NCBI GenBank assembly: GCA_013200995.1
Contig: CP053688.1
Span: 1,798,001 to 1,862,000, forward strand
Source of the DNA: Arthrobacter citreus
Lineage (GTDB): Bacteria; Bacillota; Bacilli; Bacillales; Bacillaceae_G
Direction of reading: 5' to 3'
Length of the DNA: 64,000 nt
In this document: positions 41,028-46,910 of the stretch, piece after piece
Layout of the letters: each line of letters opens with the position of its first letter
How positions within the stretch are numbered: the first letter of the stretch is position 1
The notes under the pieces: model-generated
Database searches by the model: none
What the model saw: the letters and a program-made list of their open reading frames with translations, nothing else
Told to the model about the DNA's origin: nothing
Made by a program: the position numbers and the translations under genes

Positions 41028-42071
41028 CTAAATGATGCTTAACTCAATTAATCTTTCAGCAATTTGCACTGAATTCCAAGCAGCACCTTTTAACAGATTA
41101 TCTGATACAATCCATAAATGGAATCCTAATGGATTATCTAAGTCTTTACGGATACGTCCTACAAATACTTCATTACTTCCAATACTGTAATATGGCATTG
41201 GATATAGTTGTTGTTCTGGATCATCTTGTAAAACGATTCCAGGTGCATCACTTAATAGTGATTTTAATTCTTCTACCGATACTTCTTTATCAACTTCAAT
41301 ATATACTGACTCTGAATGACCAGAAATTACAGGTAGTCTTACGCATGTTGCACTAATTTGTAATTCAGGTAAATGCATGATTTTTTTAGTTTCATTTATC
41401 ATTTTCATTTCTTCATAAGTATATCCATTTTCAGTAAATACGTCGATTTGTGGAATTGCATTAAAAGCAATTTGATAATGTTTTTCACCACTTTTTACCG
41501 GTAATACTGATGGAGTAGCTTCTTCGCCATTTAAGAAAGCTTGAGCTTGATCCTTTAACGCTTCAATCGCTGTAACTCCAGCACCTGAAACAGCTTGGTA
41601 AGTAGAAACTACTACTTTATTTAAACCAATTGTTTGACGAATTGGTTCAAGTGCAACAACCATTTGAATTGTTGAACAGTTAGGGTTAGCAATAATACCT
41701 TTATGATTAAATAAATCTTTGTCATTTACTTCAGGTACAACTAATGGCACATCTACAGCCATTCTGAAAGCACTAGTGTTATCTACTACAACTGCTCCTC
41801 TTTTTACTGCTTCTGGAGCTAGTTCTTTCGATACAGATCCCCCAGCACTAAATAAAGCAATATCTACACCTTCGAATGCTTCAGGAGTAGCTTCTTGTAC
41901 GATAACTTCTTGCCCATTGAATGATAACTTTGTTCCTGCAGAACGTTTTGATGATAAGTATTTAATTTCTTTAATTGGAAAATTTCTTTTTTCTAATGTT
42001 GCAATCATTTGTTGTCCAACTGCACCAGTCGCACCTACTACAGCTACTACATAACTTTGTTTATTCCCCAC
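41028..42071 (-). CDS. asd: Aspartate-semialdehyde dehydrogenase
   Basis: 347 residues. NADPH-dependent reduction of aspartyl phosphate. Motifs: [17 protein letters not shown] (NADP loop), NPNCSTIQM with the catalytic Cys, and [11 protein letters not shown] with the active-site His. It begins with GTG. It lies after the 3' piece of split dpaB, and with the intervening element in place it is about 3 kb from the rest of the dpa genes; a sigma-A-like promoter of its own lies just upstream. Confidence 0.96.
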
Positions 42072-42254: not shown

Positions 42255-42428
42255 TTATTGTAGATCACGATATTTTTCAACTAGAACTGGTTGAAGCTGT
42301 TTTCCTTCTATTGAAGATTTAACTGTATCAAGTAATGCTTCCATTCTTGCTACTAATGAATTTGGTTTTTTTACAGGATCGTCTTGACCAAAGGGAATAA
42401 AATATATATTTTTTGTACTCATTAAACG
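42255..42428 (-). CDS. dpaB: Dipicolinate synthase subunit B, C-terminal part of split gene (last 57 codons)
   Basis: This stretch has no start of its own but encodes the conserved DpaB end: RLMSTKNIYFIPFGQDDPVK, then KPNSLVARMEALLDTVKSSI and EGKQLQPVLVEKYRDLQ followed by TAA (42255-42257). It is in frame with the 142-codon 5' part at 45471-45896 once the intervening 3,042 bp are removed across the shared CATTAAATT. The joined protein is 199 residues, against about 200 for B. subtilis SpoVFB. While the element is present this piece cannot be translated as part of DpaB. The open frame shows no decay, which argues for selection to keep it working. Confidence 0.95.
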   Translation of the reverse strand, partial: RLMSTKNIYFIPFGQDDPVKKPNSLVARMEALLDTVKSSIEGKQLQPVLVEKYRDLQ

Positions 42429-42457
42429 CATTAAATTATGGCTTAGAGGATAATACC
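42429..42457. other. Attachment site of the dpaB element, asd-side (core plus inner arm)
   Basis: Core CATTAAATT (42429-42437), identical to the copy at 45471-45479, followed inside the element by the arm TGGCTTAGAGGATAATACC (42439-42457). The arm is the inverted partner of 45452-45470 (17 of 19 identical). The predicted crossover dinucleotide is AA at 42433-42434. Confidence 0.85.
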
Positions 42458-42581
42458 TATTTAATCAGTTTATCGTTTTATATGGGACATATAAATTGAC
42501 TTAAAAGGAAGTATCATAAAGGATTTAATTGGGGATTGAAACAAGAAAGCAGTTAAAAATAATGAATAATGCAATTTCATC

Positions 42582-43118
42582 CTATTGATGATTGTTAACA
42601 TAATAGTAAGAGTATACATAATCCAATTGTTTTTTAATGCAAGTATTATAAAATGTTTGTTTGTAATCATTATAGAGTACTCTTAAAAAGCTATCTCTAA
42701 TCGATTTAATTGTTAAATTATGAAACCTCAAATAACATTCAGTCCAAAAAAACATATTATTTGAAAAAGTTTCATCGTCAATTTCAAAGAATGATCGTAC
42801 AGCTTTCACTCCCATATTTCCTAACAATACGGAAACATCCTCCACGTCAACATTTGCATCGAGTTCAAAAATGACAATCTGAGAATCACTTCTATGATGT
42901 TTTTGTGAACTACTTACTGAGTATCCTATTAATTCACCATTTGTTAGATTTAAAGCAACTACCGCTTTGGCATAATCTAATGTCCAATTTTTATAAGCTA
43001 GCTCCAACACATCTCTAATTCTAACATTTGAAATTAAATGCTCGGCATGTTTTTGTTCAATCAGTTTTTCCACTTTATTTAGTTGTTTTTTGAATTGATA
43101 TTCGATAATAACCAACAT
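42582..43118 (-). CDS. Hypothetical protein carried by the dpaB element
   Basis: 178 residues; no family recognised. It looks soluble: an N-terminal charged helix (YQFKKQLNKVEKLIEQKHAE), a middle beta-like part (AKAVVALNLTNGELIGYSVS), and a C-terminal end rich in Tyr/Phe/Asn. The middle part (VVALNLTNGELIGYSVSSSQ) faintly recalls an acetyltransferase-like strand pair, but no acetyl-CoA loop is visible. A GAGAGG lies only 1 nt from the ATG at 43118 (4 nt from the TTG after it), so the start is uncertain. It has its own terminator upstream of it and is not needed for the split-gene logic; it may be cargo, a remnant of a larger ancestor or an excision helper. Confidence 0.65.
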   Translation of the reverse strand: MLVIIEYQFKKQLNKVEKLIEQKHAEHLISNVRIRDVLELAYKNWTLDYAKAVVALNLTNGELIGYSVSSSQKHHRSDSQIVIFELDANVDVEDVSVLLGNMGVKAVRSFFEIDDETFSNNMFFWTECYLRFHNLTIKSIRDSFLRVLYNDYKQTFYNTCIKKQLDYVYSYYYVNNHQ

Positions 43119-43171
43119 GCCTCTCTATGATGAATATTTAAACTCACTATCACCATAAATACGTTCCTTTT

Positions 43172-43205
43172 GTAAAAAAAATGACAGATTTTTGAATAAT
43201 CTGTC
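43172..43205 (-). terminator. Intrinsic terminator inside the dpaB element (T1)
   Basis: Stem GACAGATT (43183-43190) with AATCTGTC (43198-43205) followed on the minus strand by eight T (43174-43181). It ends something transcribed from 43206-43590, where I see no gene. Confidence 0.75.
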
Positions 43206-43589
43206 CTAGACTGCTCGCCAAACGCTCGCTTCTTTCGTAATTGGTCTATCTTCGGTGCTCATTATCCCGTAACAAACTAGTAATACTATTCAACTACTTG
43301 TATCGTCATATTAGTGTCATGGCCTTTATTATATCTTCAGAAAAAATGATTGCATATTTAGTTTTTTACCGTTGTAAAAGGATAAAAAATAGATTCTAAC
43401 AAGGGCTGGAGGCATCGTATCTAAAGGTTTGTTAAATTTAAGTGGCCGTCCAAAAATCGTAATCGACACATTAGCGATCTTGACTGTCTTGTCATAAAGG
43501 AAAGTGTGAGGGTATCTAAGTGGTTTTTTTCAATAAGAGTTGATTATACGAGCCCCATTTATGGATATTTAATGAGTTAATTCCTAAAA
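43206..43589 (-). other. Gene-poor stretch of the dpaB element closed by a terminator
   Basis: About 380 bp between two minus-strand terminators. The only in-frame candidate is an 18-codon frame (43206-43262, MSTEDRPITKEASVWRAV) that ends right at terminator T1 and has a poor ribosome binding site. It may be a decayed gene or a non-coding RNA. No repeats or promoters were recognised with confidence. Confidence 0.35.
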
Positions 43590-43636
43590 ACACAAAAAAG
43601 AGGTTATCCCTATCACACTATCGGGACACCCTCTAG
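43590..43636 (-). terminator. Intrinsic terminator of the 58-codon gene (T2)
   Basis: AGAGG with CCTCT plus TCCC with GGGA (43599-43634), followed on the minus strand by TTTTTTG. It directly follows the stop of the 58-codon gene. Confidence 0.75.
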
Positions 43637-43637
43637 T

Positions 43638-43814
43638 TTAATAATCATCCTTATTCTCCAACTCTTGTTTAATAATTTTCCAGCCAATTAGGTGGATTTC
43701 TTCGAGGATTTTTATTTTATTTTCTTCCGATACATCAATAGGTGCAATGATATTGACTTTTGTTTTTCCAAATTGATAGGTAGCAGTAAATTCTGTTTGT
43801 TTGCTCAGTTTCAC
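43638..43814 (-). CDS. 58-codon protein divergent from the recombinase (candidate recombination directionality factor)
   Basis: 58 residues: begins VKLSKQTEFTATYQFGKTKV, continues NIIAPIDVSEENKIKILEEI and ends IGWKIIKQELENKDDY. A GGGGG run lies just upstream; the start is GTG at 43814 (or the CTG two codons on, which has better spacing). A TATAAT (43829-43834) lies upstream on the minus strand. The YGK-x3-NI-x2-P pattern resembles small proteins I associate with serine-recombinase modules. Its position and size make it the best candidate for an excision factor (SPbeta SprB is also 58 residues, from memory), but this is inference. Confidence 0.7.
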   Translation of the reverse strand: MKLSKQTEFTATYQFGKTKVNIIAPIDVSEENKIKILEEIHLIGWKIIKQELENKDDY

Positions 43815-43943
43815 CACCCCCGTAATTTATTATATGATTCGTTTGGATACGGACTAACCAATCTTTTAATAAGGTTACGAGAGCTTCACAAATTATTTAA
43901 TTCCTTAATTAGACATATACATAGTCTAAGAGGTGAAAAATAA

Positions 43944-45440
43944 ATGGAACGTGTTGCTTTGTATTTACGGAAAAGTCGTGCGGATCTTGATGCTGAAGCC
44001 CGTGGTGAAGGTGAAACTTTATCAAAACATAAAGAGCAGCTTTTAAAATTCGCACAAGATAGTCAGTTAAATATAATTTGTATTCGGCAGGAAATTGCTT
44101 CTGGTGAATCACTTGTTTATCGTCCGGAAATGCTTAAGCTCTTACAAGAGGTCGAGGAATTTAAATATGATGGTGTACTTGTAATGGATATGGATCGGCT
44201 TGGACGCGGTAATATGAAGGAACAAGGAATTATATTAGAAACCTTTAAATCTTCCAAAACAAAAATTATTACGCCTAGAAAGACTTATGATCTACATGAT
44301 GAGTTCGATGAAGAATATAGTGAATTTGAAGCTTTTATGGCTCGAAAAGAGTTGAAAATTATTACTCGTAGACTTCAACGAGGTCGTATTTTATCAGTTC
44401 AAAGAGGCAATTACATCGGAACTTTTGCTCCTTATGGCTATGATTTATATGAAACAAAAGAATTTCGTTCTTTAAGTATTAATATTGAACAGGCAACAGT
44501 AGTAAAAAGTATTTTCGAATGGTATACAAAAGAATTGATTGGTGCAACTGAGATTGCGAACCGTTTAAATCAAATGAATATACCTTCTTTTTCGGGTAAG
44601 AAGTGGAGCTATCATTCTATTCTTGAAATGATAAAAAATCCTACTTACATTGGTAAAATAACCTGGAATAAAAAAAATGGCAAGGGTGTAAGAAAGCCTA
44701 AATCTGAGTGGCTTATAGTTGATGGAAAACATGATGCAATTATCGATAACGAAGTATTTAATTCGGCACAAGAAATTTTAGGTAGTCGTTATCATGCTCC
44801 TTATAATAGTAAGTTAAGCAATCAGCTAGCTGGATTAATTTTTTGTAGTAAATGTGGTTCAAAATTACAGCAGCGCTATCCGAAAGGAAAACCTAGACAA
44901 ATTGTTTGTACAAATAACCGCTGTAATACTCGGTCCTCCTATACTCATTTAGTTGAAGAGAGGATATTACAAGGATTAGAAATTTGGTTAAAAGAGTATA
45001 AACTAAGTTTTAAAAATCTATTAGAGACCAACGACTTTGAAGTTATTAATTTAAAAAAACAAGCACTTAAGCAAATCGAAAATGATTTAAAGGAAGTAGA
45101 AAAACAAAAAAATAATTTATTTAATTTTTTAGAACGTGGAGTTTATGATGAATCCATTTATATTGAACGCTCTGAGATACTCTCTAATCGTTTTAAAGAG
45201 CTCTCAAATAGTAAGACCTTAATAGTAGAAGAATTGTCAAAATATCAACAAAGAGAACAGTTTAAAGAGCAAATGATTCCAACAGTTGAAAACGTGCTAG
45301 ATTTATATTTCAAAACAACTGATATAGAGCTTAAAAATCATCTACTGAAATCAATCCTAATTAAGGTTGAATATCAAAAAGAACCACATCAAAAATTAGA
45401 TGATTTTAGTATTATTCTTTATCCGAAGCTACCAAAATGA
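43944..45440 (+). CDS. Large serine recombinase, SpoIVCA type
   Basis: 498 residues (SpoIVCA 500). Domain order: N-terminal resolvase catalytic domain with nucleophile Ser11 in ALYLRKSRADLD and MDMDRLGRG at ~87-95; recombinase DNA-binding domain (~170-280, GTFAPYGYDL, AGLIFCSKC boundary); zinc ribbon with Cys301, Cys304, Cys322, Cys327; and a charged coiled coil (~365-430). It should cut both att sites and join them with a 2-bp overlap. AAGAGGTGA (43928-43936) precedes the ATG. It is on the strand opposite to dpaB, and its stop codon lies 12 bp from the attachment arm. CATATACAT at 43914-43922 vaguely resembles a sporulation -10. Confidence 0.95.
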   Translation: MERVALYLRKSRADLDAEARGEGETLSKHKEQLLKFAQDSQLNIICIRQEIASGESLVYRPEMLKLLQEVEEFKYDGVLVMDMDRLGRGNMKEQGIILETFKSSKTKIITPRKTYDLHDEFDEEYSEFEAFMARKELKIITRRLQRGRILSVQRGNYIGTFAPYGYDLYETKEFRSLSINIEQATVVKSIFEWYTKELIGATEIANRLNQMNIPSFSGKKWSYHSILEMIKNPTYIGKITWNKKNGKGVRKPKSEWLIVDGKHDAIIDNEVFNSAQEILGSRYHAPYNSKLSNQLAGLIFCSKCGSKLQQRYPKGKPRQIVCTNNRCNTRSSYTHLVEERILQGLEIWLKEYKLSFKNLLETNDFEVINLKKQALKQIENDLKEVEKQKNNLFNFLERGVYDESIYIERSEILSNRFKELSNSKTLIVEELSKYQQREQFKEQMIPTVENVLDLYFKTTDIELKNHLLKSILIKVEYQKEPHQKLDDFSIILYPKLPK

Positions 45441-45447
45441 TTTTGGT
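45431..45447 (+). repeat. Palindrome at the end of the recombinase gene
   Basis: ACCAAAATGATTTTGGT: an 8-bp inverted repeat with a 1-nt centre covering the recombinase stop codon. Too short-looped for a normal terminator; it may mark the end of the attachment region or stop transcription weakly. Confidence 0.4.
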
Positions 45448-45451
45448 GTTT

Positions 45452-45479
45452 GGTATTATCATCTAAGTCACATTAAATT
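45452..45479. other. Attachment site of the dpaB element, dpaA-side (inner arm plus core)
   Basis: Arm GGTATTATCATCTAAGTCA (45452-45470) and core CATTAAATT (45471-45479). With the partner arm it would form a symmetric attP with arm-core-arm of 19-10-19 bp. The core encodes Asn-Leu-Met on the dpaB strand; the crossover dinucleotide is predicted at 45475-45476. Confidence 0.85.
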
Positions 45480-45896
45480 GGTTCCATTTAAACCTAAAGC
45501 ATCATTTGTAGAAATACCTAAAACAACAGGTTTTCCATTTCTTAAAGTAGCTTTAGCTGCCATTAATACAGGGCTGTCAGTTTGAGCATTAGCAAACTTA
45601 CTCATTGAATTACCCGTTAAAGGTGCAATGACCATACAATCTAATTGTACTTTTGGTCCAAATGGTTCTGCTCCTACAATTGAATCAACTGTTTTACGCC
45701 CTGTTATTTCTTCAATTTTTTTGATCCAGTCTTCTCCTACACCAAATCTTGTAGTTGTACTTTTTACTGTAAATGTGACTACAGGATATACGTCAGCTCC
45801 ATCATCGACTAATTTTTGAATTTGGGGTACGACCTCTTCATAAGTACAATGAGAACCTGTAATTCCGAATCCTATTTTCTTACCTTTTAAACTCAT
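45468..45896 (-). CDS. dpaB: Dipicolinate synthase subunit B, N-terminal part of split gene (142 codons)
   Basis: Flavoprotein-like (HFCD family) subunit that, with DpaA, makes dipicolinic acid in the mother cell for spore heat resistance. Starts MSLKGKKIGFGITGSHCTYE and keeps the motifs APLTGNSMSKFANAQTDSPV and LGISTNDALGLNGTNLM, where it runs into the element and stops after one more triplet (TGA, 45468-45470). The last ~57 residues of the family are missing here and are found at 42255-42428. The ATG overlaps the dpaA stop as TAATG. As it stands the product would be truncated and most likely inactive. Confidence 0.95.
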   Translation of the reverse strand: MSLKGKKIGFGITGSHCTYEEVVPQIQKLVDDGADVYPVVTFTVKSTTTRFGVGEDWIKKIEEITGRKTVDSIVGAEPFGPKVQLDCMVIAPLTGNSMSKFANAQTDSPVLMAAKATLRNGKPVVLGISTNDALGLNGTNLM

Positions 45897-46795
45897 TACG
45901 ATTGCTCCTTCCTTTTCTCTAAATCTTCTTTTAATAGCTGCGTTAGTACGTTTGCGATTATTTGCCCTGCTGTTTTAGGAGCAACGATTCCTGGTAAACC
46001 TGGTGCTAATAATGCTTTAATACCTCTTTTTTCAGCATAACGAAAATCTGTTCCTCCAGGTTTTGAAGCTAAATCAATAATTAGCGCATGTGGTTGTAAT
46101 TTTGAAATGACCCCTGCAGTGACAATTAAAGTAGGAACTGTATTAATAACAATATCAACATCCTTTAAGGCTTCTTCAATGTTCTTGAATTCAAATGCTT
46201 CTAAGCCCATTTCAACGATTCTTGCAATATGTTCAGATTTACGAGCCCCTACTTTTACTTTAGCCCCTAAATTATGAAAGGTCCTTCCGACACTCATTCC
46301 TGTGCGACCTAAACCTAATACGGCTACTTTCGAATTATGAATCGTGTATTCAGTGTGTTGAATTACCATCATAATTGTTCCTTCAACAGTTGGAATACTA
46401 TTATAAATTGCTACATCATCACGTTCAAATAATTTTACTAATTTTCGATTTGAAGCTGCAACTATACTATCTAAGTAAGAGTTACTTATTCCGGAGTAAA
46501 TCGTACAATGAGCTGGAGTACTATCTAATATTTCTTTCGTCAAAACAACTTTTTCATTTGAAAAAATTGTATCAACAACTCCTTCAATATTCGTACCTGG
46601 TACTGGTAGAAGAATTGCATCTAGATCTTCAAAATTAGCATCAGCCATTAATTCTTTTGATGCACTTGTAAAACCACTATCTAATTGTTCGAAACCTATT
46701 AATGTTACTTTTGCGTCTAACTCTGTTAACTTTCGAATAACTTCTAACTGTCTGGCGTCCCCGCCAATCACAGCAATGTGCAAGCCAGTTAACAT
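45896..46795 (-). CDS. dpaA: Dipicolinate synthase subunit A
   Basis: 299 residues (SpoVFA). NAD(P)-dependent dehydrogenase-like subunit that oxidises dihydrodipicolinate to DPA. Rossmann motif VAVLGLGRTGMSVGRTFHNL at about 154, then GARKSEHIARI, and APGLPGIVAPKTAGQIIANV near the end. Intact. AGAAGGTGA lies before the ATG. A sigma-K-type promoter is ~85 bp upstream. ymxH, found before spoVFA in B. subtilis, is missing. Confidence 0.96.
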   Translation of the reverse strand: MLTGLHIAVIGGDARQLEVIRKLTELDAKVTLIGFEQLDSGFTSASKELMADANFEDLDAILLPVPGTNIEGVVDTIFSNEKVVLTKEILDSTPAHCTIYSGISNSYLDSIVAASNRKLVKLFERDDVAIYNSIPTVEGTIMMVIQHTEYTIHNSKVAVLGLGRTGMSVGRTFHNLGAKVKVGARKSEHIARIVEMGLEAFEFKNIEEALKDVDIVINTVPTLIVTAGVISKLQPHALIIDLASKPGGTDFRYAEKRGIKALLAPGLPGIVAPKTAGQIIANVLTQLLKEDLEKRKEQS

Positions 46796-46881: not shown

Positions 46882-46910
46882 TATCTTATGAATCTTCCTT
46901 TGCATTGGTG
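46882..46910 (-). promoter_or_regulatory. Sigma-K-type promoter of dpaA
   Basis: On the minus strand CACC (46907-46910), 16 nt, and CATAAGATA (46882-46890), which matches the sigma-K -10 CATAnnnTA exactly. spoVFA is sigma-K-controlled in B. subtilis, in the mother cell. Confidence 0.6.

What the first reader, a model, noticed from the sequence alone, without database searches (positions are those of the whole stretch)
42429..45896. dpaB (spoVFB) is interrupted by a 3-kb recombinase element and is restored in frame by excision
Seen: dpaB codons 1-142 end in ...NGTNLM then stop at 45468; the missing C-terminal 57 codons start exactly after a second copy of CATTAAATT at 42429. Removing 3,042 bp across this repeat gives an uninterrupted 199-residue DpaB. 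A SpoIVCA-like serine recombinase lies inside. Known: sigK-skin and spsM-SPbeta are repaired this way in the mother cell during sporulation, and an element in spoVFB (vfbin) has, to my memory, been described in a B. cereus-group strain. Inference: this is a very small, sporulation-excised element gating dipicolinate synthesis.
Basis: partly seen in the sequence, partly recalled or inferred. Interest (0 to 1): 0.95.

Follow-up and report, generated by a model that had tools for sequence, protein, structure and literature searches.

The report
Minimal skin-type element splitting dpaB
In this soil-type bacterium the only gene for one subunit of the enzyme that makes the spore-protecting chemical dipicolinic acid is cut in two by a 3-kb DNA element, which likely cuts itself out and rejoins the gene when the cell builds a spore; the same element sits at the same codon in ten of twelve related genomes, so it looks like a lasting, very small programmed DNA switch.

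Summary
Confirmed. The window lies in a Gottfriedia-group genome. Its only dpaB is split at codon 142 by a 3,042-bp element carrying a large serine recombinase. Eleven of 13 genomes of the genus carry it at the same codon; two have natural uninterrupted dpaB. The bare 9-bp repeat is at chance level, but each copy borders one arm of a 19-bp inverted repeat that would form a symmetric attP in the circle.

Evidence that dpaB is rejoined: the 3' half, without an evident ribosome-binding site, evolves under strong purifying selection (dN/dS 0.05); the recombinase stays intact and co-diverges with the host; one sister assembly breaks exactly at the core, with two bases of the circle junction. Excision, its timing and DPA output were not observed.

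The unit is skin-type: 23 of 34 related loci outside the genus lie beside a sigK half, and 29 of 34 hold a small ORF related to the 59-aa ORF here, a predicted directionality factor. dpaB is split at two other positions in three other genomes.

Known kind: vfbin interrupts the same gene in Bacillus weihenstephanensis. New: the minimal genus-wide form without phage genes beyond the integrase-type recombinase, the skin-type unit in dpaB, and a third conserved ORF.

The parts
45468..45896 (-). dpaB 5' half: codons 1-142, then a stop just past the core
   Evidence: TIGR02852 positions 1-137; only dpaB place in the genome
45452..45479 (-). attL: 9-bp core 45471-45479 plus element arm 45452-45470
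43944..45440 (+). large serine recombinase, 498 aa, convergent with the dpaB 5' half
   Evidence: Pfam domains, PHROG 95 integrase, alignment with YokA, dN/dS 0.080 in 11 genomes
43818..43943 (.). shared upstream region of recombinase and o59: TGGTTAGTCC - 14 bp - CATATAAT on the minus strand, predicted mother-cell promoter of o59
   Evidence: both blocks kept in 11 of 11 split genomes; positions; sigma-E consensus recalled
43638..43817 (-). o59: 59-aa protein, predicted recombination directionality factor
   Evidence: in 11 of 11 split genomes; related ORF at 29 of 34 loci with related recombinases; model beta-beta-alpha, mean pLDDT 77.5; role not tested
42582..43118 (-). o178: 178-aa protein of unknown role
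   Evidence: in all 11 split genomes, dN/dS 0.20; 8 homologues in the protein search; no Pfam or NCBIfam match over its cut-off and no PHROG
42429..42457 (-). attR: element arm 42439-42457 plus 9-bp core 42429-42437
42255..42437 (-). dpaB 3' half (its ORF from the ATG is 42255-42431); no ribosome-binding site seen before the ATG
   Evidence: TIGR02852 positions 137-187; sequence; dN/dS 0.050 in 10 genomes
45896..46795 (-). dpaA, first gene of the pair
   Evidence: TIGR02853 spore_dpaA, 452 bits, cut-off 320
46882..46909 (-). sigma-K-like promoter before dpaA: AC-N17-CATAAGATA
   Evidence: 6 such matches on both strands of the window; -10 kept in 12 of 13 genomes; consensus recalled

Best explanation
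The only dpaB of this Gottfriedia-group genome is split at codon 142 by a 3,042-bp element that likely excises itself in the mother cell during sporulation, rejoining dpaB in frame. Shown: the split, the shared core, the symmetric arms, the recombinase, naturally uninterrupted dpaB in two sister genomes, purifying selection on both gene halves and on the three element genes. Inferred: in growing cells and in the forespore the element stays in place. In the mother cell, sigma-E-type transcription would make the 59-aa protein, which would act as directionality factor and switch the serine recombinase to excision. attL and attR would recombine at the central TT of the core, giving a circle with a symmetric attP and an intact dpaB. 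Sigma-K would then transcribe dpaA-dpaB, so that dipicolinate is made late. The mother cell dies, so the element is inherited through the spore. By descent the recombination unit is of the type found at sigK (skin elements), likely moved to dpaB and stripped of its phage.
For: One dpaB in the genome. Split at the same codon in 11 of 13 genomes of the genus, uninterrupted in 2, and uninterrupted in 6 of 6 genomes of other genera of the family. Window attP matches at 17 of 22 positions, relatives 17-19, 10 of 10 genomes measured; 20,000 random pairings gave mean 10.9, sd 1.2, best 17. dN/dS of the dpaB 3' half 0.050, close to dpaA 0.051 and asd 0.039. Element and host distances correlate, r = 0.987, p = 0.0001. 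In G002 the contigs break at the core, and one carries two bases of the circle junction. Related recombinases lie beside a sigK half at 23 of 34 loci, with an o59-like ORF at 29 of 34. sigK itself is intact here.
Against: No excision, expression or DPA was measured. The -35 before o59 does not fit the sigma-E consensus (recalled). The sigma-K-like promoter pattern occurs six times in the window. The circle evidence is one assembly break and two bases. The window's own attP score (17) equals the best of 20,000 random pairings; only three of the ten scores are higher. o59 has no detectable relation to any solved directionality factor, and five of the 34 related loci show no o59-like ORF. G006 and G004 do without the element.
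Confidence: 0.87

Rival explanations
1. Excision happens but is not tied to sporulation: it occurs at a low level in all cells, or on stress, giving a mixed population as in phase variation.
For: The G002 assembly suggests some excised molecules in DNA of unknown growth stage. [quoted passage not shown]
Against: The other split genomes assembled in the integrated form. CATAYAAT before o59 is kept in 11 of 11.
Confidence: 0.06
2. dpaB is dead: the element is a parasite that broke it for good, and dipicolinate is made another way or not at all.
For: Some spore formers make DPA without DpaAB (recalled).
Against: dN/dS 0.05 for the 3' half and no internal stop in 10 genomes; persistence with host co-divergence.
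Confidence: 0.03
3. No excision is needed: the two halves are made as separate polypeptides that assemble into a working subunit.
For: Both halves keep an open frame, and the 3' half starts with an in-frame ATG.
Against: No ribosome-binding site is seen before that ATG. In G008 the 5' half runs on for four extra residues and the 3' half sits in a longer frame. Does not explain why recombinase and att arms are kept.
Confidence: 0.03

Closest known systems
vfbin in spoVFB (dpaB) of Bacillus weihenstephanensis KBAB4 (Abe et al. 2013; paper not seen, known here through passages of PMC4191935, PMC10747680, PMC6957869 and the discussion of PMC5595907)
   Same: Interrupts the same gene; reported as excised during sporulation; recombinase expressed at sporulation.
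   Different: Reported to carry phage-related genes; here no ORF but the integrase-type recombinase matches a phage family. Insertion codon and recombinase identity could not be compared.
skin elements in sigK (B. subtilis, C. difficile and others)
   Same: Related recombinases, mostly convergent with the 5' gene half, and an o59-like small ORF at most loci.
   Different: Target gene is dpaB, not sigK; the element is 2.8-3.0 kb in nine of the ten genomes measured. B. subtilis Skr is encoded immediately upstream of spoIVCA and overlaps it, whereas o59 is divergent.
gin in gerE of B. cereus ATCC10987 (PMC5595907)
   Same: Non-prophage element with serine recombinase, 9-bp core and a separate directionality factor.
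   Different: 28.6 kb with 31 genes and three recombinases.
SP-beta in spsM and phi3T in kamA (PMC4191935, PMC6957869)
   Same: Large serine recombinase homologous to ours; 58-aa directionality factor with a mother-cell promoter.
   Different: Prophages in other genes; no detectable sequence match of o59 to a solved directionality factor.

Membership tests
sporulation gene-intervening element | interrupts a mother-cell sporulation gene that exists uninterrupted in relatives | tested here: met
   dpaB split in 11 of 13, intact in 2 of 13 genus genomes and 6 of 6 of other genera; mother-cell expression of dpaB is taken from B. subtilis (recalled)
sporulation gene-intervening element | short shared core at both ends, joining the gene in frame | tested here: met
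sporulation gene-intervening element | own site-specific recombinase | tested here: met
sporulation gene-intervening element | directionality factor made in the mother cell | tested here: inconclusive
   o59 fits by place, size and family; no functional test; no solved homologue
sporulation gene-intervening element | excision during sporulation | not testable with these tools
   only a contig break at the core in G002
vfbin | located in spoVFB/dpaB | tested here: met
vfbin | carries phage-related genes | tested here: not met
   of four element ORFs scanned only the recombinase matches a PHROG; the feature is taken from a passage
vfbin | same insertion codon and related recombinase | not tested
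   KBAB4 sequence was not reached
skin (sigK element) | inserted in sigK | tested here: not met
   sigK intact in one piece; the element is in dpaB
skin (sigK element) | recombination unit (recombinase plus small protein) of the sigK-element kind | tested here: met
   23 of 34 relatives outside the genus beside a sigK half; o59 family at 29 of 34; placing inside the tree weakly supported, 0.33

The most novel reading that the evidence does not exclude
This is a near-minimal, fully domesticated programmed-excision device: a phage-derived, sigK-type recombination unit that changed target to dpaB early in the genus, shed its phage, and has been inherited with the host ever since. Its 59-aa gene belongs to a family of directionality factors that serves skin-type recombinases across Bacilli and Clostridia, and its 178-aa gene is a third, genus-specific part of the switch. 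Mother-cell genes (sigK, dpaB at three different places, perhaps a cotJC-type gene) are interchangeable homes for such units.
Probability: 0.45. Interest if true: 0.72.

Novelty: new variant of a known kind. Interest (0 to 1): 0.6.

Why it matters
The sporulation elements described in the papers seen here are mostly prophages, defective prophages or a 28.6-kb island, so the parts needed for timed excision are hard to isolate. Here nature offers a 2.8-kb version with one recombinase, one candidate directionality factor and clear att sites, kept by selection in many species: a compact test bed, and possibly a tool for one-way, cell-type-timed DNA switching. It also suggests that the split state can last as long as a genus, and that dipicolinate synthase has been split several times. 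Comparing split and naturally intact sister species makes an open question directly testable: does the host benefit, or is it merely bound to excise or make no proper spore?

Tried and rejected
A second intact dpaB: none found. The 9-bp repeat as proof in itself: rejected, chance level. o178: no Pfam or NCBIfam match over its cut-off, no PHROG at E up to 0.01, no phage record, 8 homologues of which the four named ones are Gottfriedia or Bacillus sp., model too poor to search (mean pLDDT 55). o59: Foldseek gave 71 weak matches, none with E up to 0.001; profile search of solved structures gave 3 matches, best E 0.011, to a lactate dehydrogenase. IMG/VR: no DpaB relative. Five faecal phage records with DpaB relatives were not followed. 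A direct comparison with vfbin was not reached.

Splits outside the genus: I picked by eye, from the 397 rows, 11 genomes outside the genus with two DpaB matches, and opened all 11. Three are real splits (G078, G118, G199). G050 looks frameshifted. In the other seven the second match is a weak hit in a 404-445-residue open frame, probably CoaBC. Splits that leave only one match would be missed, so three is a lower bound.

Dropped before counts: the two intact genomes from the dN/dS means; G002 from the dpaB 3'-half and asd means, because those parts lie on another contig; pairs without usable dS (54 of 55 left for o59, 48 of 55 for o178), and dS values of 5 or more left out of the mean. The attP score used 10 of the 11 split genomes (G002 left out). 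Of the 68 recombinase matches listed, only the 29 fetched as loci outside this genome were examined for neighbours.
Full report
WHAT IS THERE. On the minus strand the order is dpaA (45896-46795; TIGR02853), dpaB 5' half (45468-45896), element, dpaB 3' half (42255-42431), asd (41028-42071; TIGR01296). The two dpaB parts match positions 1-137 and 137-187 of the dpaB family TIGR02852. The genome, 5.47 Mb in 3 contigs, shows one dpaB 5' part and its 3' part. Three of these are named Gottfriedia acidiceleris (two) or G. luciferensis (one); six are named only Bacillus sp. Gottfriedia is a genus of Bacillaceae.

THE ELEMENT. From core to core it measures 3,042 bp in the window, 2,778-2,823 bp in eight relatives and 9,227 bp in G008, named Bacillus sp. 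EAC. In G002 it lies across two contigs. Its genes are a 498-aa large serine recombinase facing the dpaB 5' half, a 59-aa ORF (o59) divergent from it, and a 178-aa ORF (o178); all three are in all 11 split genomes. The recombinase has the three usual Pfam domains and aligns with SP-beta integrase YokA over residues 4-475, serine opposite serine in YLRKS / YLRRS (that this is the catalytic serine is recalled). Of four element ORFs scanned, only the recombinase matches a PHROG.

ATTACHMENT SITES. The 9-bp core AATTTAATG occurs five times in the window with 4.14 expected, so alone it proves nothing. On the element side of each core lies one arm of an inverted repeat. With two mismatches allowed the arm pattern occurs only at these two places (0.18 expected; 1 of 100 shuffles reached two). 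Joined as in a circle, the arms match at 17 of 22 positions in the window and 17-19 in the nine relatives measured. Random pairings gave mean 10.9, sd 1.2, best 17, none of 20,000 at 18 or more. The empty site is not symmetric about that centre (9-10 of 22). In G008 the attR core differs at one base, leaving TTTAATG in common, and the arms of G008 stay symmetric, 19 of 22. The centre of symmetry is TT, the likely crossover (inference).

SISTER GENOMES. All 13 genomes of the genus have one dpaB 5' part. Eleven are split at the same codon; G006 and G004 are uninterrupted; all six genomes of other genera in the family are uninterrupted. Recombinase distances track host-gene distances, r = 0.987, permutation p = 0.0001 (0.976, p = 0.0002 without G008), so the element has been inherited with the host. 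In the nucleotide tree G006 pairs with G008, which has the element (0.98), suggesting a precise loss in G006; the protein tree does not resolve the order of G006 and G008 (0.07). G004 falls outside the rest in the protein tree rooted by other genera (0.998) and may never have had the element.

IS DPAB REJOINED? Three lines. (1) Selection: mean dN/dS among split genomes is 0.011 for the 5' half (11 genomes), 0.050 for the 3' half (10), 0.051 for dpaA (11), 0.039 for asd (10), 0.080 for the recombinase, 0.20 for o178 and 0.25 for o59 (11 each), no internal stops. The 3' half has an ATG but no ribosome-binding site that I can see before it, so constraint on its protein points to translation after joining. 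(2) Assembly: in G002, contig C34 ends two bases past the core, and these bases (TG) are the ones expected in the circle, not those of attR (CG); contig C23 ends one base beyond the other side of the core. An assembler would stop there if both integrated and excised molecules were present. It is two bases and one break, so suggestive only. (3) Naturally uninterrupted genes exist at the same site.

TIMING. Before o59, 11 of 11 genomes keep TGGTTAGTCC, 14 bp, CATAYAAT (positions in the window): a good sigma-E -10 by the recalled consensus, with a -35 that does not fit it. An imperfect -35 is also reported for sprB (passage). Before dpaA lies AC-N17-CATAAGATA, sigma-K-like by the recalled consensus; this pattern occurs six times on both strands of the window, and its -10 is kept in 12 of 13 genomes. 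sigK is in one piece here. The order sigma-E for excision, then sigma-K for dpaA-dpaB, is plausible, not shown.

DESCENT. The related recombinases examined outside the genus are 48-55% identical. In the named genome collection 4 of 5 lie beside the 5' half of sigK. Of 398 genomes sampled from the class, 51 (this one included) have a match at E up to 1e-100; of the 29 such loci fetched from other genomes, 19 lie beside a sigK half. Together that is 23 of 34. A profile started from o59 finds a related small ORF at 29 of these 34 loci after three rounds: divergent from the recombinase in 28, within 700 bp in 24; 5 loci show none. The rounds after the first include ORFs from the same loci, so the count leans upwards; the first round gave 29 hits before any such addition. 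The tree keeps the Gottfriedia recombinases together (support 1.0) among mostly sigK-associated ones, but its inner placing is weak (0.33). Phage relatives exist, the best Thermoanaerobacterium phage THSA-485A at 50%. Reading: a phage-derived, sigK-type unit moved to dpaB and lost its phage.

DPAB AS A REPEATED TARGET. Of 397 genomes sampled from the order, 382 have a dpaB match. Twelve of the 397 are of this genus (10 split, 2 intact). Of the other 385, 11 showed two matches and all were opened: three are splits with a serine recombinase next to the 5' half, namely G118 (about 11 kb) and G078 (about 21 kb), both near codons 86-89, and G199 (about 46 kb, near codons 16-23). Their recombinases are 22-34% identical to ours.

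COMPARISON WITH THE LITERATURE. What I saw: passages of PMC4191935, PMC10747680, PMC6957869 and PMC5025042; of PMC5595907 the abstract, the first of three parts of the results, and the discussion. vfbin in spoVFB of B. weihenstephanensis KBAB4 is described there as excised and carrying phage-related genes; the original paper was not seen. In the listings of the searches on spoVFB/vfbin, dipicolinate synthase with intervening element, gene rearrangement with serine recombinase, and dpaB with prophage I saw no title or abstract on Gottfriedia; the search for Gottfriedia with sporulation returned no paper. The library holds open-licence papers only. So: known kind, same gene as vfbin, but a new, minimal, genus-wide variant.

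SCORES. Confidence that the element excises and restores dpaB during sporulation: 0.87. Interest 0.6: a specialist knows the phenomenon, but probably not this small, clade-fixed form, nor the small protein family that accompanies skin-type recombinases.

Noticed in passing
G000:C1:735323-736267 and 817979-818275 (same genome, outside the window; L098, L132, L133): A kamA-like gene is also split: positions 2-319 and 313-417 of TIGR03820 lie about 82 kb apart, with a second serine recombinase right after the 5' part. A full-length homologue lies at 4182547-4183767. kamA is a known target of phi3T-type phages.
   Followed up: partly
L010:5001-8574 (Petroclostridium sp. X23): The only match to sigK other than weaker sigma-factor hits is split with its halves in opposite orientation, around an inverted core AGGTAATGAA; recombination there would invert about 1.7 kb instead of excising it, so sigK may be restored by inversion.
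   Followed up: partly
L070 (G008, Bacillus sp. EAC), between the o59 and o178 homologues: The 9.2-kb version of the element carries an Mga-type regulator and a set of WxL-type cell-surface proteins, so the element can take up cargo.
   Followed up: partly
L130:3073-3462: A related recombinase lies beside a 5'-truncated manganese catalase ORF (CotJC-like by recall), perhaps another interrupted spore-coat gene.
   Followed up: partly
window 43120-43640: The window's element is 219-264 bp longer than its eight short relatives, with the extra DNA between o59 and o178. The same stretch keeps hairpin-plus-T-run signals and a conserved block CGGTAAAAAACTAAATATGCAAT in 10 of 11 genomes, perhaps a leader of o178.
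   Followed up: no
G118 and G078 (L089-L091): Two genera of other families share a dpaB split near codons 86-89 with related recombinases but inserts of 11 and 21 kb.
   Followed up: partly
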